Shown here: piece by piece, positions 11,891 through 49,822 of the stretch
Position numbering within the stretch: the first letter of the stretch is position 1
Layout: every line of letters begins with the position of its first letter
From: Phormidium ambiguum IAM M-71
Lineage (GTDB): Bacteria; Cyanobacteriota; Cyanobacteriia; Cyanobacteriales; Aerosakkonemataceae
Direction: 5' to 3'
Assembly (NCBI RefSeq): GCF_001904725.1
Contig: NZ_MRCE01000022.1
Coordinates: forward strand, 24,644-88,643
DNA: 64,000 nucleotides
The notes under the pieces: generated by a model
The model's database searches: none
Told to the model about the DNA's origin: nothing
What the model saw: only the letters and a program-made list of their open reading frames with translations
Made by a program: the position numbers and the translations under genes

Positions 11891-13189
11891 TTAGATAAAA
11901 AAGATAAATTTGATTTGTAATTGCCAGTTTTCGTTTTGTCGCCAAAGTTGAATTTCTCGAATAAATTCCCGAAAATAAAATCTTCGTTCTGATTCAGACA
12001 AATCTTGCCAAAATTGAGGAATTGAAACTGCTTGGGCTGTTTCGCGCAAATTTACTGGTGGTAATTCAGCTAGTTTTGATTGAAGTTGGGCAATTTCTGT
12101 GCGAAGTTTGTAGGCGCGAATTTCGGATGTTTCTTGGTCTAAAATTCCTTGTTGAATTAAGTTAGGTAGTTGGGTGAGAATTTGTTGTTTTTGGGCGATC
12201 GCATTTCCCAGATTGGTTTTAATTTCTCCCATGTCTGGTAATTGCATTTGAGCAACGGCTTTTGGCAATTCTTGGCAAGTCATTTGAATGGTTTCATCCA
12301 ATATTTCTTGATATGGAATAGCTCGACATTTGGGCTTTTTAGGGCATTTTATTGGGCGTAAATAAAGATATTCTTTGTCTTTTCTATGGGTAGTAACTTT
12401 GACGATATTCATGGGCGATCGACATTCACCACAAGTTACTAATCCGGCTAAAGAACGAGGTGCGCTGGCGGTACGGGGGGACATTCGTTGATTGCGGCGC
12501 AAAAGGCGATCGATCTGTGCTGCTTCTTCTCTAGAAATTATGGCAGCATGAGTATCAGAAATAATTTGATTGTTTTGATAAGCTAAATCTCCGCGATAAA
12601 CGGGATTAATTAACCAACGTTTTCCTGTGGATACTGATATTTTTTTCCCATATTTCTTGGCTAAATAACGAACTGCACCTCGCAAAGAACCAAAGAGTAA
12701 AAATTGTTCAAAAAAGTAGCGGACTACGGGCGCAGAACTTTTATCTATAATATATTTGTCTTTACCTCTACGATAACCATAAGGTGCTTTGCCAGGGGGA
12801 GGCAAGGCTTTTAAACGATTGCGAGCGTGTCCTTGTTTTAAGCGGCGACTACGTTGAGTGTTGTTAATTTCTTGTAATAGTTTGAGTAAGTCAATTTTGC
12901 TGGAATTAGTAAATTTGGTTTCTGATTCACCGATGATTATTGTAATGCCTAGAGATTCAATTTCGGTTAAGCGATCGCACACTTCTTGTACAGAATCTCC
13001 TAATTCAGCTAAACTGCGAATTAATAAATTTTTTGGGGGATTGTTTTGACTTTCCATCAACAGTTTTTGTAACTGTTCTCGTCCTCCAAAATCTTGATAA
13101 ATTCGCTTTATTTCTAGGGAAAAATTTGATGGATTTGGATTTGCTTCCCAGAGGGGATCGCTGTAAATATAAGCAATGTTTTCGGTCAT
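11891..13189 (-). CDS. XisF-like large serine recombinase with atypical catalytic domain
   Basis: 432 residues. The N-terminal 100 residues form a resolvase-like domain (AYIYSDPLWE, with Ser10 in the position of the resolvase nucleophile). A Recombinase domain follows (PPPGKAPYGYRRGKDKY, LINPVYRGDLAY), then a zinc ribbon (CGECRSPM and KCPKKPKC), a coiled coil (about 320-380) and a C-terminal tail. This order matches XisF, the fdxN-element recombinase of heterocyst-forming cyanobacteria. The resolvase arginines usually found as YxRVS and LDRLGR are replaced here (YIYS and LAELGD), while the Arg in GGREQL is kept. No element edges were found nearby. Possibly a domesticated or element-specific recombinase. 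Confidence 0.82.
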   Translation of the reverse strand: MTENIAYIYSDPLWEANPNPSNFSLEIKRIYQDFGGREQLQKLLMESQNNPPKNLLIRSLAELGDSVQEVCDRLTEIESLGITIIIGESETKFTNSSKIDLLKLLQEINNTQRSRRLKQGHARNRLKALPPPGKAPYGYRRGKDKYIIDKSSAPVVRYFFEQFLLFGSLRGAVRYLAKKYGKKISVSTGKRWLINPVYRGDLAYQNNQIISDTHAAIISREEAAQIDRLLRRNQRMSPRTASAPRSLAGLVTCGECRSPMNIVKVTTHRKDKEYLYLRPIKCPKKPKCRAIPYQEILDETIQMTCQELPKAVAQMQLPDMGEIKTNLGNAIAQKQQILTQLPNLIQQGILDQETSEIRAYKLRTEIAQLQSKLAELPPVNLRETAQAVSIPQFWQDLSESERRFYFREFIREIQLWRQNENWQLQIKFIFFI

Positions 13190-14006: not shown

Positions 14007-14624
14007 ATGTCAGAAATTAGCAAGGAGGAAATGCGGGAAAGACTGGGAAATATTGACCAGATCCGCGATATTATTTTTGGGCCTCAATTGCGAGAATATG
14101 ATAATCGCTTCGACAAAATAGAATCTGATATTTCTCTGCTCCAGCAAGAGATGCGCGATCGCATCGATCAAGTAAAAACAGTTGTATCTACAGAACTACG
14201 TTCAGCCTTTGATTCATTAGAGAAAAAAGTGAGGTCTATTAGCTTAAGTTATCAAGAGGAAATTAGCGATTTACGTCAACAAGTCGATCGGGTAAATAAA
14301 AAATTTACTAACGCCATCGAAGGATTGGATCAAAATATTGACAATCAAACTAATTCACTTCGCAAAGAACTAACAGACAGCAGAACTAAACTACAAGAAG
14401 ATGTTCGGACTTTGAGGCTTCAAGTTTTTGAAGAATTAGAACGGCGTTTGTCAACTATGAGAGACGTGAAAGTTTCTAAAGATGATGTAGCAGAAATTTT
14501 GTTTGAATTGGGAATGCGACTTAAAGGAAATGAATTTGTTCCTCAGTTAAAACAAGCAGTAACAATTGATGATGATGTTTATACGGATGTGCCAATTATA
14601 GATCAAACAAAAAAATGGGAATAA
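14007..14624 (+). CDS. Coiled-coil protein, first gene of the GTPase/cyclase locus
   Basis: 205 residues with no membrane segment. Residues 1-30 contain RDIIFGPQLREYDNRF, a conserved-looking start; about 30-155 is a long heptad-rich coiled coil rich in Glu, Lys, Arg and Gln; about 155-185 forms a compact acidic/hydrophobic end (SKDDVAEILFELGMRLKG). AGAAAGGTG precedes the ATG. It is separated by 285 bases from the OmpA-type gene, in the same direction. I know no function. A scaffold or oligomerising partner for the GTPase/cyclase proteins that follow is an inference from position only. Confidence 0.72.
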   Translation: MSEISKEEMRERLGNIDQIRDIIFGPQLREYDNRFDKIESDISLLQQEMRDRIDQVKTVVSTELRSAFDSLEKKVRSISLSYQEEISDLRQQVDRVNKKFTNAIEGLDQNIDNQTNSLRKELTDSRTKLQEDVRTLRLQVFEELERRLSTMRDVKVSKDDVAEILFELGMRLKGNEFVPQLKQAVTIDDDVYTDVPIIDQTKKWE

Positions 14625-14909
14625 TCTAAAATTTACAACTTGAAAACTTAGTTGTTAGTTTTCTACTCCTGAGTTAATTCAAGTTGCCAGTTACAAATAT
14701 TGTTGGTTAGCTCCCCCCTAGATCTTACTCTGTGGAAAGACTATAACTATAAATAAGGGTGTAGAATTTAATCAAAGTCCTCCTTGTTATAGGTATAGCC
14801 TTTCCCCAAAGAGGGGAGATTTAGAGGGATCGAAAACATATAGATCGATCGCAAGCAACTTGCCTACTTAGTTTACTTCGCTAACCAGTAAAATCAGGGG
14901 TTATTACTT

Positions 14910-17465
14910 ATGAGCTTATCTCAAGAAAATCCAGCTGAAACGAATCAGCTGGAATATTTTGTTTCTGAGCCTAATCATCTCCATCAAAAAACAGAATTAG
15001 AGATAGAAAAGCTAGTGGACTTATTAGTTGACTTAAAAATTATTCATCAAGTGAATAGTACCAATGAATTAATAAATGATGAAAAAGATGATAAAGAAGC
15101 TTTGAGTTCAGCCACAGAATTTGAAGTACAAGATATTAGTATTGATAAATCAGAAGCAAAAGAACAGCAAGATTTACCAGAAGCAAATGAGATACCAGTA
15201 GAAATCGAAAAAGTAAACCAACAATTAATTTTATCTCCAGCCATCAGTAATCAAATAGAAATAGCTCGTCCTTCTGTATCATTGTTAGAATATTATGAAG
15301 AGAATATAGATGAATTATATGATGCTTATAAAAGATTGCAAGTCCTTTTGTTAGAACCAGAATTAAGTGAATTACAAGGGTTAATTTACCAGTTTGAGCA
15401 AAAACTTACTAATATTGAACAGCAAATTTATGAACCGCAAGAATTAATTAACTTACTTTTACCGATTATTTCCGAATTACTAAATCGAAAAATTAATGAT
15501 TCGCCAGAATCTAAAGCCTCTATAATTAATACTATAACTCCGATAATTCATGAATTAATTCAAGCTAAAACCCAGGAAGATAAAATCAGTATTGCTACTG
15601 CTATTGCGGCGGCAATTCCGCCAGCAATTTCTATAGAAGCACATCAAGAACCTGTAGAATTAGCAATAGCTATTGCTCCGATAATTGCTCGAGCAATTAA
15701 AGAACAAATTCATATAGATCCGCAGGGAATAATTGAGTCTCTTACCCCAATTATCGATCAAGTAATTAAGAATAAAAGGGAAGAAGATAAAGAGGCTTTA
15801 ATTTTAGCGATCGCGCCATTACTTCCCCCAGCAATTTCGGAACAAATTCGCAGTCATCCCCAGGAAATTGCTCAAGCGATCGCGCCAGAATTAGCCGCAG
15901 CAATTAGGGAACAAAATAAAATAGATGAAAATGCTATTTCCAAAGCATTAGCATCAGAAATGGGGAAAGCAATTAAAGAACAAATTGCTATTGAAAGGGA
16001 TGCAATGGTTGACGCGCTCTACCCCGTAATTGGCAGTACTATTAGTAAATACATGGCAGACGCAATTCGATCGATTAATGAAAAAATCGAAAATGCCATA
16101 AGTTTAGAAGGAATAAATCGGAAAATCCGCGCCAAAATGCAAGGGGTTTCGGAAGCAGAACTAATTTTTAGAGAAGCTATTCCTTTTACGGTTCGTGCTG
16201 TATTTTTAATTCACAAAAGTTCAGGTTTATTAATCGCTGATGCTCAACCAGAAAACCAACAAAAATTAGAATCAGACATGGTAGCAGGGATGCTTACAGC
16301 GATTCGGAGTTTTGTTAATGATTGTATTGCGCGATCGGGAGAAGTGTCGGAAATTGATGCGATCGACTATGGGAATTCTAAAATAATTCTAGAAGTAGCT
16401 GGTTATTGTTATTTAGCAGTAGTAACTCAAGGAAAAACTCCTCAGCGTTACATTCGTAAAATCCAAAAAAGTCTCTACAATATTGTGCAAGTAGCTGGTA
16501 ATGAAATTGAAAAATTTGCGGGAGATCCCGACACAATTCCCCAAAAAGTTCAACAAATATTAGCTAACTTAATTAAAATCAGCGAACAACCAACAAAAGA
16601 GAAAAAATTCCGACTTAATGGATTGTTGTTGGTGACATCTTTTTTGTTAGGGATTATTATTTTACCTTGGGGATTTCATTACTATCGTCAGGAGGTAGAA
16701 CGCCGATTAGAACAAGAAACAATGGAAGCTTTTGCATCAGTTCCCGAATTAGCTGTTTATCGTTTAAATGCAAATATTAGTGATGGTAAATTACAGCTTT
16801 CAGGAAGTTTACCAAATTCCGATCTGCGGACAAAAGCTGAAGAAATAGCGAGAAAAATTGCTCCAAATCAGTTAATTGAAAATAAAATTATTGCTGTAGA
16901 GTTACCGCCTAATCCTATAAATATAGCTTCGGAAATCAAACGAGTTACTTCCGCTTTAAATCAAATCAATGGTATTACTGTTTATTCTTCGTACACAAGT
17001 GGTAAAGTAATTGTAAAAGGCAAGGTATCTCAAATTGAAGATGGAGAAAAAATTACTCAAGTATTCAAGCAGATTCCCGGCGTAAAAACTGTAACTAATA
17101 CAGTCCAAATTCAACCACTGGCGATCGCCACTCGAATTTATTTTGATTCAGGAGCAACAGATCTAAAAGCAACAGACAAAAACAAAATTTTGCAAATCAA
17201 AACCTTATTAGAGCAAAATCCCGAATTGTCTTTGAGAATCATGGGTTACAGCGATCCTATTGGTTCTCCAGACACTAATCTAAAATTAGCACAATCCCGT
17301 GCAGAAACAGTGAGAAATGCCTTAATTACTCAAGGAATTGCTCCCAAAAGATTGCAAGCTCTAGCAGCACCTACACCTCCTTTAGGTGTGGATTCTCAAA
17401 AACCTTTATGGTTAGCAAGATGCGTTGAATTTCAACCAGTGGTGTCGCAGGAAAATAATCAATAA
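14910..17465 (+). CDS. Transmembrane protein: helical repeats, roadblock/longin-like domain, two BON domains, OmpA domain
   Basis: 851 residues. About 1-120 is acidic and disordered. About 175-395 holds imperfect helical repeats built on units like IAPIIARAIKEQI and LAPELAAAIREQ. About 420-530 (AVFLIHKSSGLLIADA, then MVAGMLTAIRSFVNDCI and ILEVAGYCYLAVVTQG) looks like a roadblock/longin-type regulator of small GTPases. One membrane helix lies at about 568-588. Two BON-like modules follow (600-665, 670-735), then an OmpA/MotB peptidoglycan-binding domain (740-845; RIYFDSGATDL, GYSDPIGSPDTNLKLAQSRA). Topology is N-in, C-out. The Rab-like GTPase gene starts two bases after the stop, so they are co-expressed and likely partners. 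Confidence 0.8.
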   Translation: MSLSQENPAETNQLEYFVSEPNHLHQKTELEIEKLVDLLVDLKIIHQVNSTNELINDEKDDKEALSSATEFEVQDISIDKSEAKEQQDLPEANEIPVEIEKVNQQLILSPAISNQIEIARPSVSLLEYYEENIDELYDAYKRLQVLLLEPELSELQGLIYQFEQKLTNIEQQIYEPQELINLLLPIISELLNRKINDSPESKASIINTITPIIHELIQAKTQEDKISIATAIAAAIPPAISIEAHQEPVELAIAIAPIIARAIKEQIHIDPQGIIESLTPIIDQVIKNKREEDKEALILAIAPLLPPAISEQIRSHPQEIAQAIAPELAAAIREQNKIDENAISKALASEMGKAIKEQIAIERDAMVDALYPVIGSTISKYMADAIRSINEKIENAISLEGINRKIRAKMQGVSEAELIFREAIPFTVRAVFLIHKSSGLLIADAQPENQQKLESDMVAGMLTAIRSFVNDCIARSGEVSEIDAIDYGNSKIILEVAGYCYLAVVTQGKTPQRYIRKIQKSLYNIVQVAGNEIEKFAGDPDTIPQKVQQILANLIKISEQPTKEKKFRLNGLLLVTSFLLGIIILPWGFHYYRQEVERRLEQETMEAFASVPELAVYRLNANISDGKLQLSGSLPNSDLRTKAEEIARKIAPNQLIENKIIAVELPPNPINIASEIKRVTSALNQINGITVYSSYTSGKVIVKGKVSQIEDGEKITQVFKQIPGVKTVTNTVQIQPLAIATRIYFDSGATDLKATDKNKILQIKTLLEQNPELSLRIMGYSDPIGSPDTNLKLAQSRAETVRNALITQGIAPKRLQALAAPTPPLGVDSQKPLWLARCVEFQPVVSQENNQ

Positions 17466-17467
17466 CT

Positions 17468-18001
17468 ATGTCTACAGTATCCAAAAAAATTTGTTTGGTG
17501 GGTGATTTCGGGGTAGGAAAAACCAGTTTAATTCGGCGGTTTGTCGAACGGCAATTTAGCGATCAATATTTGTCCACAGTTGGCGTAAAAATTTCCCAAA
17601 AGCAGATTAGTTTACCAGTAAATCCTGAACAGAAAATTCAAAATTTACAATTGATGATTTGGGATTTGGAAGGTCATACTAAATTTAAAACGATCGCACC
17701 TTCTTATCTACGAGGATCTAGCGGTGCAATTATAGTCGCAGATGTTACTCGTCAAGAAACAATGGAGCGCTTAGAAGAGCATATAAAGCTATTTTTATCA
17801 ATTAACTCTCAAGGTTTTATTATTATTGCTTTTAATAAATCTGATTTATTTGATGAAGAAAAAGTAGCTCAGTTATTAACAACTTACAACTTTAGCGAAC
17901 AACCGCGAGTAATTTCTACTTATGCGACTTCTGCAAAAACAGGTAAAGATGTTGATTTAATTTTTGAAAAACTTGCTTACAAAATAGTTTTTCCTGAATA
18001 A
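17468..18001 (+). CDS. Rab/Ras-like small GTPase
   Basis: 177 residues, essentially one G domain. G1 is GDFGVGKTS (12-20); switch I Thr is in LSTVGVK (Thr37); G3 is WDLEGHTKF (65-73); G4 is NKSD (123-126); G5 is TSAKTG (154-159). His70 stands where Ras/Rab have the catalytic Gln61, so intrinsic hydrolysis may be slow or need a partner residue. There is no C-terminal Cys, hence no prenylation; membrane recruitment would need a partner, plausibly the roadblock/longin-like protein encoded two bases upstream. The adenylate cyclase gene follows after about 60 bases. Confidence 0.92.
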   Translation: MSTVSKKICLVGDFGVGKTSLIRRFVERQFSDQYLSTVGVKISQKQISLPVNPEQKIQNLQLMIWDLEGHTKFKTIAPSYLRGSSGAIIVADVTRQETMERLEEHIKLFLSINSQGFIIIAFNKSDLFDEEKVAQLLTTYNFSEQPRVISTYATSAKTGKDVDLIFEKLAYKIVFPE

Positions 18002-18061
18002 AGTACAAAGCAAATATTTGTTATTTGATTTTTAACTATATAATGGTTCTGGAACTTGATT

Positions 18062-20047
18062 ATGAAATTAACTAAAATCTATGAAATTTTGCAACAAAAA
18101 TCTATTTTGAATTCCATAGATTATTTAGTAATTAATGAAGATTTCAAAATAATCGAAATTTCAGAAGGGATAATTAAATTTACGGAAATTTTACCAGAAT
18201 TAATCTTAAATAAAGATGTTCATGAAGTTTTTCCAGAATTAATTGGGATAGAAGATATTCTAGAGGAAATTTTGCAAGGCGATCGGCAATATTTTGATTT
18301 CAAAGGTATTGCGCGGTTAACTGATTGTAATTCTACTGCATACATAGATATTTATATTGTTAAGGACGATGAAATTAACAGTAATCAATTACTTATAATT
18401 CTAGAAGATGTTACCGAAAAAATGGTTTTAGAACAAACTTTAATTCAACGAAATAATGAATTAGAACTTTTATTTAGTAAGCTATCAAATTCTAATCAAT
18501 ATATTGATAAAATTATTGGATCGATGGCAGATGCTTTGTTAGTAACTAACAAATCAGGAAAAATTAAAACTGTCAATAAAGCTGCGGAAATTTTATTTGA
18601 ATACAATGAAAATGATTTAATTGATCGACATATTTCAATTATTATTAATAATCATGAAAGTCAATTTCAATCGATTTATGAAGAAAGACTGTCTATTGGC
18701 GAATCGTTATCAGATATAGAATTAATTTGTCAAACTAAAAGCCAAAAAGAAATTATTGTGGCGTTTTCTTGCTCTACTATTCCTACAGAAATACCAGGAA
18801 TTCAAGATTATTTGTATCTTGGTAGAGACATTACAGAAAAACTACTAATTGAACGGCAAAGGAAGCTGGTAGAAAAACGGTTATTCGCGCAATATTTTAT
18901 CAGTCGTATCCTTTCTAGTGTTGATACTCTTAAGGAAGCATTACCAAAAATTCTCCCGGCAATATGTGAAACTTTGAATTGGGATATAGGGGAATTTTGG
19001 ATTTCAAAAATCACCAGCGATAATCCTCAAATGCAATGTTTAGAAATCTGGGTTAAACCCCAGTTAAATATTCCCGAATTTGAGGAATTAACCAAGAAAA
19101 CAGCTTTTAATTTAGGTGAGAGTTTACCAGGGAAAGTTTGGGAATCAGGGGTTCCGATATGGAGTAATGATTTAGTTAACGACGTGAATGTTGCGCGATC
19201 GCAAATTGCTATTAGCGCGGGAATATCCACTGCTTTTGCATTTCCGGTTAATCATGAAAATGAAATTTTAGGAGTGATGGCTTTTTTTAGTTGTCAGCAC
19301 CAAGAATTTGATGACCACTTATTACAAACAATGCTAACTATTGGGAATCAAATCGGGCAGTTTATCCAAAAAGAAAAAGCAGAATTAGCATTACGTTATG
19401 AACAAGAACAAACCGAGCGGTTACTGTTGAATATTTTACCACATAAAATTGCCCAAAAGTTAAAACATCACCCCAGTACTATTGCTGATTATTTCAAGGA
19501 AGTGACTGTAATGTTCGGAGATATTGTGGGGTTTACACAGCTTTCTGCTACAGTCTCTCCAACGGAATTAGTAGAAATTTTAAATGCCATTTTTTCCGAA
19601 TTCGATCGATTAGTAGAAAAACATAACTTAGAAAAAATTAAAACTATTGGAGATGCTTATATGGTGGTAGCGGGATTACCAAAACCCCGCAAAGATCATG
19701 CGATCGCAATTGCAGAAATGGCACTAGATATGCAAAAAACAATCGATCAATATAATCTAGAAACTAACAGTTCTTTAAGTATGCGAATCGGCATTAATAG
19801 TGGAGATGTGGTTGCTGGCGTAATTGGCAGGAAAAAATTTATTTATGATTTGTGGGGTGATACCGTTAATATTGCTAGTCGTATGGAATCTCATGGATTG
19901 CCAGGAAAAATTCAAATTACAGAAGCAACTTATAAATATTTGCGCGATCGCTATTTATTTGAAAAACGCGGATATGTAGAAATCAAAGGCAAAGGAGAAA
20001 TGCTCACCTATTTTTTAACAGGTAGAATTGAAAATGTCAGACAGTAA
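18062..20047 (+). CDS. PAS-PAS-GAF class III adenylate cyclase
   Basis: 661 residues from the ATG at 18062 (an in-frame TTG lies six bases earlier). Order: PAS-like (about 15-120), PAS (150-260), GAF (280-440), short linker, class III cyclase (480-655). Numbered from the TTG, metal-binding Asp489 (MFGDIVGFT) and Asp533 (TIGDAYMV) are present. Lys529 and Asp598 (YDLWGDTVN) are the ATP-selecting residues, and Arg609 (NIASRM) is the transition-state Arg, so cAMP is the expected product. No membrane segment. The last 14 bases overlap the next small gene. Upstream neighbours encode a Rab-like GTPase and its probable partner. Confidence 0.92.
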   Translation: MKLTKIYEILQQKSILNSIDYLVINEDFKIIEISEGIIKFTEILPELILNKDVHEVFPELIGIEDILEEILQGDRQYFDFKGIARLTDCNSTAYIDIYIVKDDEINSNQLLIILEDVTEKMVLEQTLIQRNNELELLFSKLSNSNQYIDKIIGSMADALLVTNKSGKIKTVNKAAEILFEYNENDLIDRHISIIINNHESQFQSIYEERLSIGESLSDIELICQTKSQKEIIVAFSCSTIPTEIPGIQDYLYLGRDITEKLLIERQRKLVEKRLFAQYFISRILSSVDTLKEALPKILPAICETLNWDIGEFWISKITSDNPQMQCLEIWVKPQLNIPEFEELTKKTAFNLGESLPGKVWESGVPIWSNDLVNDVNVARSQIAISAGISTAFAFPVNHENEILGVMAFFSCQHQEFDDHLLQTMLTIGNQIGQFIQKEKAELALRYEQEQTERLLLNILPHKIAQKLKHHPSTIADYFKEVTVMFGDIVGFTQLSATVSPTELVEILNAIFSEFDRLVEKHNLEKIKTIGDAYMVVAGLPKPRKDHAIAIAEMALDMQKTIDQYNLETNSSLSMRIGINSGDVVAGVIGRKKFIYDLWGDTVNIASRMESHGLPGKIQITEATYKYLRDRYLFEKRGYVEIKGKGEMLTYFLTGRIENVRQ

Positions 20048-20231
20048 TCCTCAATTAACGCCAAACGAACTCGCAGAATGGCAGACGAAAATTGAAATTG
20101 CTAACCTGCATAACATTTTTTGCCACTGTCGTTATTGTGACAAAGAATGGGTAGCATCTACTTATGAAACCTGTAGTTGTGGTAGTAAAGAAGTAGAATA
20201 TATTCTTTGTTGGCAATTTCCTGACGATTAA
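20034..20231 (+). CDS. Small Cys-rich, probably zinc-binding protein
   Basis: 65 residues from the ATG at 20034 (a TTG two codons upstream is less likely). Cysteines cluster as CHCRYC and, after about 12 residues, CSCGS, with a final Cys near the end; this looks like a zinc-ribbon knuckle pair. The start overlaps the end of the adenylate cyclase gene in another frame, so the two are translationally coupled. Function unknown; a small regulator of the cyclase module or an independent metal protein are both possible. Confidence 0.68.
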   Translation: MSDSNPQLTPNELAEWQTKIEIANLHNIFCHCRYCDKEWVASTYETCSCGSKEVEYILCWQFPDD

Positions 20232-20369: not shown

Positions 20370-23006
20370 ATGAGTATGAAAATTATTAAACTGCAAACAC
20401 TTAGAGGCCCTAATTACTGGAGTATTCATCGTCACAAACTAATAGAAATGTGGTTGGATCTCGAAGAAATGAACGAAGTTTATTCTAACGAGGTTCCCGA
20501 ATTTTATGAAGGATTAGTCGAAATTTTACCTAGTTTAGAAGAACACTTTTGCTCTCCGGGACATCGCGGAGGTTTCCTCAAGCGAGTCAAACAAGGTACG
20601 TTAATGGGGCACGTTATCGAGCACGTGGCTTTAGAATTACAAACTTTAGCCGGAATGCGTGTTAAATTCGGTCGCGCCCGTTCTACATCTCAAACAGGAA
20701 TTTATCGAGTCATATTTGAATATCGTCATGAAGTTGCAGGTCGTTATGCAGCAAAAGCCGCATTAAGATTAGTAGAAAATATTATCGATCGCGGTTACTA
20801 TCCCCACAAAGAACTAAAATTAGATTTAGAAGATTTAAGAAAATTAAAAGCAGAAACATCCCTTGGTTTAACTACAGAATCTATTCTTAAAGAAGCAGAA
20901 GCCCGCAAAATTCCTTGGACAGAATTACCAGCGCGAGGTATTGTTCAATTAGGTTACGGAATTCATCAACGCCGCATTGTTGCTGCCCAAACTTGCAATA
21001 CAAGTTTGCTAGGAACTGAACTTGCTTGTGATAAAGAAGGCACAATTACTATGTTACGGGAAGCTAACTTACCTGTTCCCAAAGGCACAGTAATTTACCG
21101 CTTTCGTCAGTTAGAAAATGCCATTGCAGAAATTGGTTTTCCGATTGTAATTAAACCTTTAGATGGCAATCACGGTAGAGGAATTACTTTAAATATTAAC
21201 TCTTGGCGTGATGCTGAAGACGCTTATGATTTAGCAAAAAGCGAATCTAAATCCGGCGGAGTGTTGGTGGAAAGGTATTATAGAGGACGTGATTTTCGGG
21301 TATTAGTAGTTAATGGCAAAGTTGTCGCTGTTGCCGAAAGAGTACCTGCTCATGTAATTGGAGATGGAAAATCAACAATTGCGGAATTAGTAGCAAAAGT
21401 TAATCAAGATCCGCGTCGAGGTGATGGGCATGAAAATGTTTTGACTCGGATTACTATTGATGAACATAGCGAACAACTTTTAGCCCAACAAAAATTAACT
21501 GTAAATAGTATTCCTGAAAAAGGAGAAATTTGCTATTTAAAAGCAACTGCTAATTTGAGTACTGGGGGAACGGCGAGCGATCGCACCACAGAAATCCATC
21601 CCCAAAATATTTGGATTGCCCAAAGAGCAGCCAGAATTATCGGTTTAGATATTGCCGGAATTGATATTACTTCTCCAGAAATTTCTCGCCCATTAACTGA
21701 AGTAGATGGCGTAATTGTAGAAGTTAATGCCGCACCCGGATTAAGAATGCACTTGCAACCAAGTGAAGGCACACCCCGCAACGTTGCTGCACCGATTTTG
21801 GATATGTTATATCCGCCCGATCGCCCACAGCAAATCCCCATTATTGCAGTCACCGGAACTAACGGCAAAACAACAACTACTCGCTTAATTGCTCACATTT
21901 TCCGCCAAACCAAAAAAACCGTTGGTTACACTACCACAGACGGCACTTATATCGGTGAATTTTTAGCCGAACCTGGAGATAATACAGGCCCACAAAGCGC
22001 CCAATTAATCTTACAAGATCCCTCGGTAGAAATCGCAGTTTTAGAAACAGCCAGAGGGGGAATTCTTCGGTCTGGTTTAGCATTTTCTCACTGTGATGTT
22101 GGCGTAGTTTTAAATGTTTCCGAAGACCATTTGGGATTGCACAATATCAACACTTTAGAAGACATGGCTCATGTTAAAAGTGTGATTGCCGAAGCGACTA
22201 ATCCTGATGGTTTTGTTGTATTAAATGCTGACGATCCATTAGTAGCAGCAATGGCGAAAAGCGATCGCGTAAAAGCTCAGGTAACTTACTTTTCAATGGA
22301 TCGTTGGAACCCAATTATTTGGGAACATATCCAAAATGGTGGAGTCGCCGCAGTTTATGACGATGGTTACATAATTTTCCTTTCCGGCGAAGATGTAATT
22401 CAAGTCGAACAAGCGGTGAATATTCCGTTAACTTTGGGCGGAAAAGCACCTTTCATGATTGCTAATGCTTTAGCTGCTTCTCTTGCTGCTTACGTTCAAG
22501 GCGTGAGTTTGGAAAATATTAGCACCGCTTTAAGAACTTTCCGTGCTTCAGTAGAACAAACTCCCGGAAGAATGAATTTAATTAATCGGGACAATTTCCA
22601 CGTTTTATTAGATTATGCTCATAACCCGGCTGGGTATCAAGCATTAGGTCAATTTGTGGAGAATTGGTCAACAGGAAAACGCATCGGTGTCATTGGCGCA
22701 CCAGGCGATCGCCGCGACCAAGATTTGCATAAACTAGGAGTGTTAGCTGCCCAAATTTTTGACCAAGTTATTATTAAAGAAGATGCGGATAATCGCGGTC
22801 GTAAATATGGTGAAGTTGCTGCCTTAATTGCTGAAGGAATTTCTCAAACAAACCCCGATTTTCCCTACGAAATTATTTTGAATGAACAAATAGCGATCGA
22901 AACTGCTTTAATCAAAGCGACAGAACATAGTTTAGTCGTAATTTTGCCCGATAAAGTCGATCGCGCCCTTGATTTACTCAAACAACCTATTTTGGTTAAC
23001 CAATAA
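20370..23006 (+). CDS. cphA: Cyanophycin synthetase
   Basis: 878 residues, the usual length. It polymerises aspartate and arginine into the nitrogen-storage polymer cyanophycin using ATP. The N-terminal domain starts with LQTLRGPNYWSIHRHKLIEM; the ATP-grasp half (about 210-480) contains FPIVIKPLDGNHGRGI and DITSPEISRPL; the Mur-ligase half (about 485-870) has the P-loop TGTNGKTTTTRL, VLNVSEDHLGLH and LLDYAHNPAGY. No cyanophycinase gene (cphB) is adjacent, although cphB often precedes cphA in cyanobacteria; upstream is the GTPase/cyclase operon. I did not find a full NtcA site (GTA-N8-TAC) in the 138-bp upstream gap. Confidence 0.97.
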   Translation: MSMKIIKLQTLRGPNYWSIHRHKLIEMWLDLEEMNEVYSNEVPEFYEGLVEILPSLEEHFCSPGHRGGFLKRVKQGTLMGHVIEHVALELQTLAGMRVKFGRARSTSQTGIYRVIFEYRHEVAGRYAAKAALRLVENIIDRGYYPHKELKLDLEDLRKLKAETSLGLTTESILKEAEARKIPWTELPARGIVQLGYGIHQRRIVAAQTCNTSLLGTELACDKEGTITMLREANLPVPKGTVIYRFRQLENAIAEIGFPIVIKPLDGNHGRGITLNINSWRDAEDAYDLAKSESKSGGVLVERYYRGRDFRVLVVNGKVVAVAERVPAHVIGDGKSTIAELVAKVNQDPRRGDGHENVLTRITIDEHSEQLLAQQKLTVNSIPEKGEICYLKATANLSTGGTASDRTTEIHPQNIWIAQRAARIIGLDIAGIDITSPEISRPLTEVDGVIVEVNAAPGLRMHLQPSEGTPRNVAAPILDMLYPPDRPQQIPIIAVTGTNGKTTTTRLIAHIFRQTKKTVGYTTTDGTYIGEFLAEPGDNTGPQSAQLILQDPSVEIAVLETARGGILRSGLAFSHCDVGVVLNVSEDHLGLHNINTLEDMAHVKSVIAEATNPDGFVVLNADDPLVAAMAKSDRVKAQVTYFSMDRWNPIIWEHIQNGGVAAVYDDGYIIFLSGEDVIQVEQAVNIPLTLGGKAPFMIANALAASLAAYVQGVSLENISTALRTFRASVEQTPGRMNLINRDNFHVLLDYAHNPAGYQALGQFVENWSTGKRIGVIGAPGDRRDQDLHKLGVLAAQIFDQVIIKEDADNRGRKYGEVAALIAEGISQTNPDFPYEIILNEQIAIETALIKATEHSLVVILPDKVDRALDLLKQPILVNQ

Positions 23007-49562: not shown

Positions 49563-49659
49563 TAATACTAGCTCTATTTTTTTATTGCCTTGCTTGATGA
49601 ATAAAAAAATCCTCTACCCCCCCATTTCGTTAAACCATTGAATCCGCTAAGATATCAAA

Positions 49660-49822
49660 GCACACAAAACTTAGCAATGTAGGGAAACTCCGGTGTAAAT
49701 CCGGGGCTGTGCCGCAGCTGTAAGCGAGAGATAGATTATCTTTAGTTGTAAACTGTCTACATCGCTAGCCAGAACGCCTACTTGTCAAAGCCCACTTTAA
49801 TTTCCTGCGTCGCACGGGAAAG
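49660..49822 (+). promoter_or_regulatory. Cobalamin (AdoCbl) riboswitch controlling cbiX
   Basis: AGGGAAACTCCGGTGTAAAT, CCGGGGCTG and the B12 box GCCGCAGCTGTAAGCG occur in the right order, followed by a variable arm and AGCCAGAACGCCTACT. The closing hairpin TTTCCTGCG / CACGGGAAA (49801-49821, one mismatch and one G-U pair) overlaps the AAAGGA ribosome site, which suggests translational repression when cobalamin is bound. Confidence 0.9.

What the first reader, a model, noticed from the sequence alone, without database searches (positions are those of the whole stretch)
14007..20231. Five-gene locus: Rab-like GTPase, wall-linked roadblock/OmpA protein and adenylate cyclase
A coiled-coil protein, a single-pass protein with a cytoplasmic roadblock/longin-like domain and periplasmic BON and OmpA domains, a Rab-like GTPase two bases later, a PAS/GAF adenylate cyclase and a coupled Cys-rich protein lie in one direction. 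Established: roadblock proteins regulate small GTPases (MglB/MglA), and OmpA domains bind peptidoglycan. Inference: a GTPase switch tied through the membrane to the wall and to cAMP signalling, perhaps in polarity, motility or septum/envelope sensing. I know of no description of this exact combination.
Basis: partly seen in the sequence, partly recalled or inferred. Interest (0 to 1): 0.85.

Follow-up and report, generated by a model that had tools for sequence, protein, structure and literature searches.

The report
Rab-like GTPase switch anchored to wall
A cyanobacterium carries a conserved four-gene signalling unit in which a small Rab-like GTPase sits next to a membrane protein, with a longin-like domain and a wall-binding domain, and an enzyme predicted to make cyclic AMP; the gene set was described in 2014, but its cyclic-AMP version and the longin-like fold look new, and its job is still untested.

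Summary
The genes are real and correctly placed. The combination is not undescribed: coiled-coil protein + (unknown domain, TM, OmpA) + GTPase + signalling enzyme is the 'Group 1 Rup' neighbourhood of PMC4316618 (passages read). Its passages name GGDEF/EAL proteins or histidine kinases as typical outputs; 'adenylate' and 'cAMP' are absent from its main text. Here the output is an adenylate-type class III cyclase. I add: (1) the unknown domain models as longin-type (Sec22b Z 14.1, MglB 10.5), so 'roadblock/longin-like' holds, longin rather than roadblock; (2) the outputs share an N-terminal PAS domain, with the conserved Gln on the helix behind it; (3) in a sample of first-type loci the GTPase gene follows in 109 of 128, the coiled-coil gene precedes in 104 of 126, a PAS-type output follows in 96 of 122, including a cyclase in 37 of 122; a Mesorhizobium plasmid shows the same four-gene order with a cyclase. 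The small Cys-rich fifth gene looks like a passenger. Wall binding, GTPase-longin binding and cAMP control are inference.

The parts
14007..14624 (+). coiled-coil protein (205 aa), conserved first gene of the unit
   Evidence: only weak, coiled-coil-type matches; homologue upstream in 104 of 126 first-type loci; 24% identity, E 6e-10, to the first gene of the Mesorhizobium unit, coiled-coil make-up may inflate this
14910..17465 (+). 851-aa single-pass membrane protein: 23-residue repeats, longin-type domain, TM, BON, OmpA
   Evidence: TM (about residues 575-597) read by eye from the sequence
15522..16073 (+). eight head-to-tail 23-residue helical repeats (residues 205-388)
16188..16589 (+). 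longin-type domain (residues about 427-560)
   Evidence: AlphaFold2 model, VIA-align Z 14.1 to the Sec22b longin over 126 residues
16938..17117 (+). BON domain (residues 677-736)
   Evidence: Pfam PF04972
17139..17363 (+). OmpA-type peptidoglycan-binding domain (residues 744-818)
   Evidence: Pfam PF00691
17468..18001 (+). Rab-like small GTPase (Group 1 Rup type), G3 motif DLEGH without the catalytic Gln
18062..20047 (+). output enzyme: N-terminal PAS with conserved-Gln helix, second PAS, GAF, class III adenylate-type cyclase
18062..18511 (+). shared N-terminal PAS domain + signalling helix (Q125, Q129 counted from ATG 18062)

Best explanation
This is a Group 1 Rup small-GTPase signalling unit with an adenylate cyclase as its output. 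Most likely mechanism: the 851-aa protein spans the inner membrane once and its OmpA domain holds peptidoglycan, so it reports the state of the envelope. Its cytoplasmic longin-type domain is the docking and exchange (or GAP) platform for the Rab-like GTPase, as longin and roadblock domains are for Rab, Rag and MglA. The GTP-loaded GTPase engages the N-terminal PAS-helix module that the output enzymes of these units share, and so switches the attached enzyme, here a cyclase making cAMP. The coiled-coil protein is probably a scaffold. Shown: genes, domains, order, conservation, predicted folds. Inferred: every binding and signalling step.
For: Gene set as described for Group 1 Rup. Order conserved in the cyanobacterial loci examined and, with a cyclase, on a Mesorhizobium plasmid (GTPases 38% identical). 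Longin-type fold. No Robl_LC7 match in the genome and only one Ras match in a short stand-alone frame, so the longin-type domain is the obvious candidate partner. Outputs of three enzymatic kinds (HK in 80, cyclase in 37, GGDEF in 7 of 122 first-type loci; added up by me) carry one N-terminal module, which models as PAS, as expected of a common input module. The cyclase has the adenylate-type Lys and Asp and the catalytic Asn and Arg (alignments; residue roles recalled). 20 cNMP_binding domains, 17 above the curated cut-off, exist in the genome.
Against: No interaction was tested or modelled; a shared fold shows no function (note). Pfam listed no longin or roadblock family and the PDB profile search gave only chance matches. 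AF2 rests on 73 cyanobacterial sequences, mean pLDDT 72. 19 of 128 first-type loci had no GTPase within 1.5 kb downstream (in L089, L114 and L187 one lies further on), and 11 of the 19 also lack the coiled-coil gene, so the membrane protein can exist alone. 26 of 122 loci show no PAS-type output. The shared N-terminal module is less conserved (38) than GTPase (63), coiled coil (61), longin (56) or cyclase (65) among 33 complete cyclase-bearing loci. The conserved Gln lies on the helix behind the PAS domain, which does not obviously suit a trans-acting catalytic Gln. The genome has 22 further class III cyclase domains, so cAMP is not specific to this unit.
Confidence: 0.6

Rival explanations
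1. An MglA/MglB-like polarity pair: the 851-aa protein is a membrane-bound MglB-type GAP and the GTPase an MglA that marks a pole or septum.
For: Roadblock proteins also match the model (MglB Z 10.5 over 106 residues); MglB regulates MglA (established).
Against: [quoted passage not shown] the C-terminal helix of a longin is predicted with confidence (residues 201-210 of the model mean pLDDT 95) and is not covered by the MglB match (model 81-191); no Robl_LC7 match; 0 of 71 small Rup coupled to MglB in the 2014 survey.
Confidence: 0.12
2. The shared PAS-helix of the output enzymes is the GAP: its conserved Gln acts in trans on a GTPase that lacks the G3 Gln, so the enzyme times its own activation (hinted at in the 2014 paper).
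For: G3 residue is H 54, S 44, Q only 13 of 117; Gln at position 129 in 97% and at 125 in 94% of 143 unique modules; Gln also near the same place in the N-terminal modules of second-type loci, by eye.
Against: Both Gln sit in the long helix that follows the PAS sheet, a usual coiled-coil signalling position; 13 of 117 GTPases do have the Gln.
Confidence: 0.25
3. The genes are only neighbours: an OmpA-type envelope protein, a GTPase and sensory enzymes that act separately.
For: 19 of 128 first-type loci without a GTPase within 1.5 kb downstream; the fifth gene shows that neighbours can be passengers.
Against: Conserved order with a median gap of 8 bases between membrane protein and GTPase, also in an alphaproteobacterium, while the kind of output enzyme changes but keeps the same N-terminal module.
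Confidence: 0.08

Closest known systems
Group 1 Rup GTPase systems (Wuichet & Sogaard-Andersen 2014, PMC4316618; outline and passages read)
   Same: Four conserved genes: Rup GTPase without G3 Gln, coiled-coil protein, unknown domain-TM-OmpA protein, signalling enzyme with an N-terminal invariant Gln
   Different: Output here is an adenylate-type cyclase, not the typical GGDEF/EAL protein or histidine kinase; the unknown domain is assigned a longin-type fold and the N-terminal region a PAS fold here
MglA/MglB (Myxococcus, Thermus)
   Same: Small Ras-like GTPase next to a protein with a related alpha/beta domain
   Different: GTPase is Rab-like with G3 Asp; the partner domain is longin-type, membrane-bound and tied to an OmpA domain; no Robl_LC7 match
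Eukaryotic and Asgard longin/roadblock platforms (TRAPP, Mon1-Ccz1, CPLANE, Ragulator)
   Same: Longin-type domain paired with a Rab-like GTPase at a membrane
   Different: Bacterial, with a wall-binding domain and a nucleotide-messenger enzyme as output; no sequence-level match found; binding untested
Actinobacterial conservons (CvnA-D; from the passages of PMC4316618)
   Same: GTPase, roadblock-type regulator and sensor enzyme in one locus
   Different: No Robl_LC7 match here; an OmpA/BON membrane protein and a coiled-coil protein instead (CvnC was not searched for)

Membership tests
Group 1 Rup system | single-domain Ras-superfamily GTPase of 150-240 aa | tested here: met
   177 aa, Ras PF00071 5e-29
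Group 1 Rup system | G3 motif keeps Asp, lacks the catalytic Gln | tested here: met
   window WDLEGH; among 117 unique first-type relatives Asp in 117, Gln in 13
Group 1 Rup system | neighbouring coiled-coil gene | tested here: met
   14007-14624; 104 of 126 loci
Group 1 Rup system | protein with conserved unknown domain, TM helix, OmpA domain | tested here: met
   TM by eye
Group 1 Rup system | signal output module with N-terminal region holding an invariant Gln | tested here: met
   Q129 97%, Q125 94% of 143 unique modules; which of the two is the paper's Gln was not established
Group 1 Rup system | output typically GGDEF/EAL or histidine kinase | tested here: not met
   cyclase here; 'typically' is the paper's word, so this marks a variant, not an exclusion
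Group 1 Rup system | placement in the Rup clade of the GTPase tree | not tested
   no reference Rup or MglA set was at hand; 38% identity to the Mesorhizobium WSM1497 GTPase; M. loti has a Group 1 Rup per the paper
MglA/MglB | GTPase G3 without the conserved Asp | tested here: not met
   Asp present in 117 of 117
MglA/MglB | Robl_LC7 partner | tested here: not met
   no PF03259 match in the genome or among the 8 families listed for the 851-aa protein at E up to 1
Longin domain | beta2-alpha-beta3-alpha-alpha topology (definition recalled) | tested here: met
   predicted model only: E83-91 E97-101 H111-131 E139-143 E146-153 E156-163 H168-190 H201-215; Sec22b 126 of 127 residues, Z 14.1, rmsd 2.7
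Longin domain | sequence-level match to a longin family | tested here: inconclusive
   none listed in Pfam or in the PDB by profile
Longin domain | binds a small GTPase or trafficking partner | not testable with these tools
   no complex prediction offered
Class III adenylate cyclase | adenine-specifying Lys and Asp, catalytic Asn and Arg | tested here: met
   IKTIGD, YDLWGDTVNIASR aligned with mammalian adenylate cyclases; residue roles recalled

The most novel reading that the evidence does not exclude
The unit is a bacterial Rab-longin pair: a membrane-anchored longin domain that regulates a Rab-like GTPase in cyanobacteria and alphaproteobacteria. The 2014 survey hypothesises that the Rab/Ras/Rho/Ran group came from Group 1 Rup by transfer, and PMC3521125 derives longins from prokaryotic roadblock-type domains; so the pairing that runs eukaryotic membrane traffic might have existed, already together, in bacteria, where it couples the cell wall to second messengers. 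Against it: PMC4915359 finds that phylogeny does not resolve how eukaryotic and prokaryotic small GTPases are related (passage), and PMC10933270 reports the roadblock/longin families as thought to be of archaeal origin (passage).
Probability: 0.25. Interest if true: 0.88.

Novelty: new variant of a known kind. Interest (0 to 1): 0.62.

Why it matters
The 2014 survey said that no Rup member had been experimentally characterised and that its GAP was unknown; I saw no experiment on one in the listings of my searches, which cover open-licence papers only. Naming a longin-type candidate partner and a common PAS input module turns 'unknown function' into three direct assays (exchange, hydrolysis, enzyme activation). 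A bacterial longin-Rab pair would also bear on how the eukaryotic trafficking switches arose, and the OmpA link would make this a small-GTPase system that reads the cell wall.

Tried and rejected
Roadblock by sequence: no Robl_LC7 in the 851-aa protein or genome. PDB profile search with the domain alignment: only beta-glucosidase matches at E 1.2 and above. In the VIA list for the domain the 50 rows shown are longin, roadblock and adaptor-type entries; no PAS entry was among them. Defence system: the PADLOC matches are weak coiled-coil matches, a weak GTPase match (5.8e-4) and Pycsar-cyclase models on the cyclase domain (best 1e-13); no effector gene was looked for. Fifth gene as a part: rejected, since in four genomes outside the genus that hold both genes it lies about 1.9 Mb or more away (G022, G184) or on another contig (G378, G314; drafts); it is adjacent in the window and in L112, Phormidium sp. 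LEGE 05292, whose contig has the same length as that of the same-genus genome G388. Promoter and terminator scans: 15 promoter-like sites against 28.4 expected, 5 terminator-like against 4.1; nothing used. Repeats in the two gaps: none found. Search for longin + cyanobacteria: the 20 of 150 papers listed have unrelated titles. Co-evolution of GTPase and longin surfaces was not tried: too few diverse pairs. The cyclase label on a tree of the longin domain changes at least 9 times in 93 loci (5 forced by starred branches; shuffled mean 29, so it is clustered), fasttree with long branches that meet; gain and loss cannot be told apart.

Selection and rows dropped. From, all 63 places outside the window with E <= 1e-90 were fetched, plus 17 weaker ones chosen by hand. 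The two sets overlap in genomes; identical proteins were counted once, near-copies were kept, so counts are not independent. Dropped before the counts: loci L109 and L110 (no longin-domain ORF), the split L093 and the 490-aa L108 (under 550 aa); loci whose contig ends too near were left out of the matching denominator. One search used GTPases over 140 aa near the membrane-protein gene, identical ones once (131 of 138). One search used matches over 100 residues. ORFs were called by a simple script of mine and domains by phmmer/HMM and a GGDEF regular expression, so counts are approximate.

Full report
What is there. Four genes on the + strand between 14007 and 20047 form the unit: a 205-aa coiled-coil protein, an 851-aa membrane protein, a 177-aa Rab-like GTPase 2 bases later, and a cyclase of about 660 aa whose likely start is ATG 18062. 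Pfam gives BON and OmpA in the second, Ras in the third and PAS, GAF_2 and Guanylate_cyc in the fourth. A fifth ORF (20034-20231), overlapping the end of the cyclase gene, encodes a small Cys-rich protein.

Already in print. Wuichet & Sogaard-Andersen (PMC4316618; outline and passages read) describe Group 1 Rup GTPases whose neighbourhoods hold a coiled-coil protein, a protein with a conserved unknown domain, often followed by a membrane helix and OmpA, and a signalling enzyme, typically GGDEF/EAL or histidine kinase, whose N-terminal region has an invariant glutamine. They note that Group 1 Rup lack the G3 glutamine and that the GAP is unknown; 0 of 71 small Rup were coupled to MglB. The words 'adenylate' and 'cAMP' do not occur in the main text; the supplement, which lists the neighbourhoods, was not read, so a cyclase may be listed there. 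The window's unit meets the listed features except the typical output kind.

Conservation. Of 388 genomes drawn from the class, 154 match the 851-aa protein at E <= 0.001, many only by the OmpA part; 61 of 388, the window's own included, have a match at E <= 1e-90 (counted by me). I fetched 80 loci from these genomes and 80 named cyanobacterial loci (the best 80 of 540). Among 136 unique first-type proteins, the GTPase gene follows in 109 of 128 (87 within 50 bases, median gap 8), the coiled-coil gene precedes in 104 of 126, and an output enzyme with the same N-terminal module follows in 96 of 122; 37 of 122 include a cyclase, 9 of these as the only such output, and 31 of 122 hold two or more outputs (sums mine). 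In 19 of 128 no GTPase lies within 1.5 kb downstream, though in three of them (L089, L114, L187) one lies further on. A second type, whose longin-type domain is 23-29% identical to the window's, has the GTPase in 14 of 14 and the coiled-coil gene in 13 of 14. On plasmid pWSM1497 of Mesorhizobium the order is hypothetical protein, OmpA family protein, 'Rab family GTPase', adenylate/guanylate cyclase; its GTPase is 38% identical to the window's and its first gene is similar (24%).

The unknown domain. An AlphaFold2 model of residues 345-575 (73 sequences) has mean pLDDT 72; the blocks from residue 425 to 554 lie at 71-95 except one loop block at 58. Foldseek's best PDB matches are longin-type domains (Ykt6, 8.9e-5; TM-score by target 0.47-0.70 in the first five). 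VIA-align gives Sec22b Z 14.1, 126 residues, rmsd 2.7; Vamp7 13.7; Ykt6 12.8; Fuzzy-Inturned 12.3; a Lokiarchaeota longin 11.8; the Mon1-Ccz1 entry 10.5; MglB 10.5 over 106 residues, without the last helix. Longins and roadblocks are said to be circular permutations of each other (PMC3521125, passages); the strand and helix order here, with a confident C-terminal helix, is the longin one. Tran et al. [quoted passage not shown] I saw no paper on a bacterial longin domain beside a Rup GTPase in the listings or the passages named, which is a limited search. In front of the domain lie eight 23-residue repeats (residues 205-388).

GTPase. PDB sequence matches are led by Rabs (1e-22). Among 117 unique first-type copies G3 has Asp in 117, and at the Gln place His 54, Ser 44, Gln 13. 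It is the genome's only Ras match in a short frame (180 aa); seven other matches lie in frames of 331 to 1049 aa.

Output module. 143 unique N-terminal modules align; E59, G62 and R85 are the best conserved, Gln 125 and 129 are in 94 and 97%. The module models as a PAS domain (mean pLDDT 82; Foldseek YtvA 1.2e-5; PYP-type Z 12.2) followed by a helix 118-149 that holds both Gln. So the region of the 'invariant Gln' is a PAS-helix module. In second-type loci the gene after the GTPase is often a 132-135-aa stand-alone protein or one of about 330 aa, with Gln at a similar place by eye; of five of these scanned, one (L107) matches a cyclase family. The N-terminal module occurs once in the window's genome.

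Cyclase. The catalytic domain aligns with mammalian adenylate cyclases (5e-81) and has the Lys, Asp, Asn and Arg of ATP-using class III enzymes (roles recalled). The genome has 23 such domains and 20 cNMP_binding domains, 17 above the curated cut-off.

Per-domain conservation among 33 complete cyclase-bearing loci (median identity times coverage): cyclase 65, GTPase 63, coiled coil 61, longin 56, BON 45, GAF 45, second PAS 44, OmpA 41, N-terminal PAS 38, repeats 21. The coiled-coil protein is about as conserved as the GTPase; the shared N-terminal module is not specially conserved, which is a point against its being a tight common docking site.

Fifth gene. Present in 26 of 60 genomes searched, the window's own included, but on other contigs or about 1.9 Mb or more away in four genomes outside the genus that also hold the unit; adjacent in the same-genus L112. 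Probably not part.

Verdict. A real, conserved, already described kind of GTPase unit, here in a cAMP variant. The added value is a longin-type fold for its 'unknown' domain and a PAS-helix module common to its outputs. Interaction, nucleotide-state control and physiology are untested.

Noticed in passing
window 15522-16073 (residues 205-388 of the 851-aa protein): Eight contiguous 23-residue helical repeats lead into the longin-type domain; the N-terminal region is poorly conserved and orthologues differ much in length.
   Followed up: partly
window about 14670-14888: About 200 bases between the coiled-coil and membrane-protein genes are missing in L112 (gap 88 against 285 bases); looks like a small insertion here or a loss there.
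   Followed up: no
window 20034-20231: Small Cys-rich (zinc-ribbon-like by eye) gene found in 26 of 60 genomes searched, own included, apart from this unit in the four compared outside the genus.
   Followed up: partly
L094-L108 (second-type loci): GTPase often followed by a stand-alone 132-135-aa domain or an unassigned protein of about 330 aa, then often a GGDEF-EAL protein or histidine kinase.
   Followed up: partly
L045, L069, L070, L115, L167, L190: Copies of the membrane protein (about 760-1200 aa) without GTPase or coiled-coil gene nearby.
   Followed up: no
window 11891-13189, - strand: Resolvase/recombinase-like protein (recalled motif, not searched) upstream of the unit; a gene of similar length and strand lies upstream in L112.
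   Followed up: no
window 20370-23006: Looks like cyanophycin synthetase (ATP-grasp plus Mur-ligase-like; recalled, not searched), directly downstream.
   Followed up: no
window 49632-49799: Cobalamin riboswitch, 37.6 bits.
   Followed up: no
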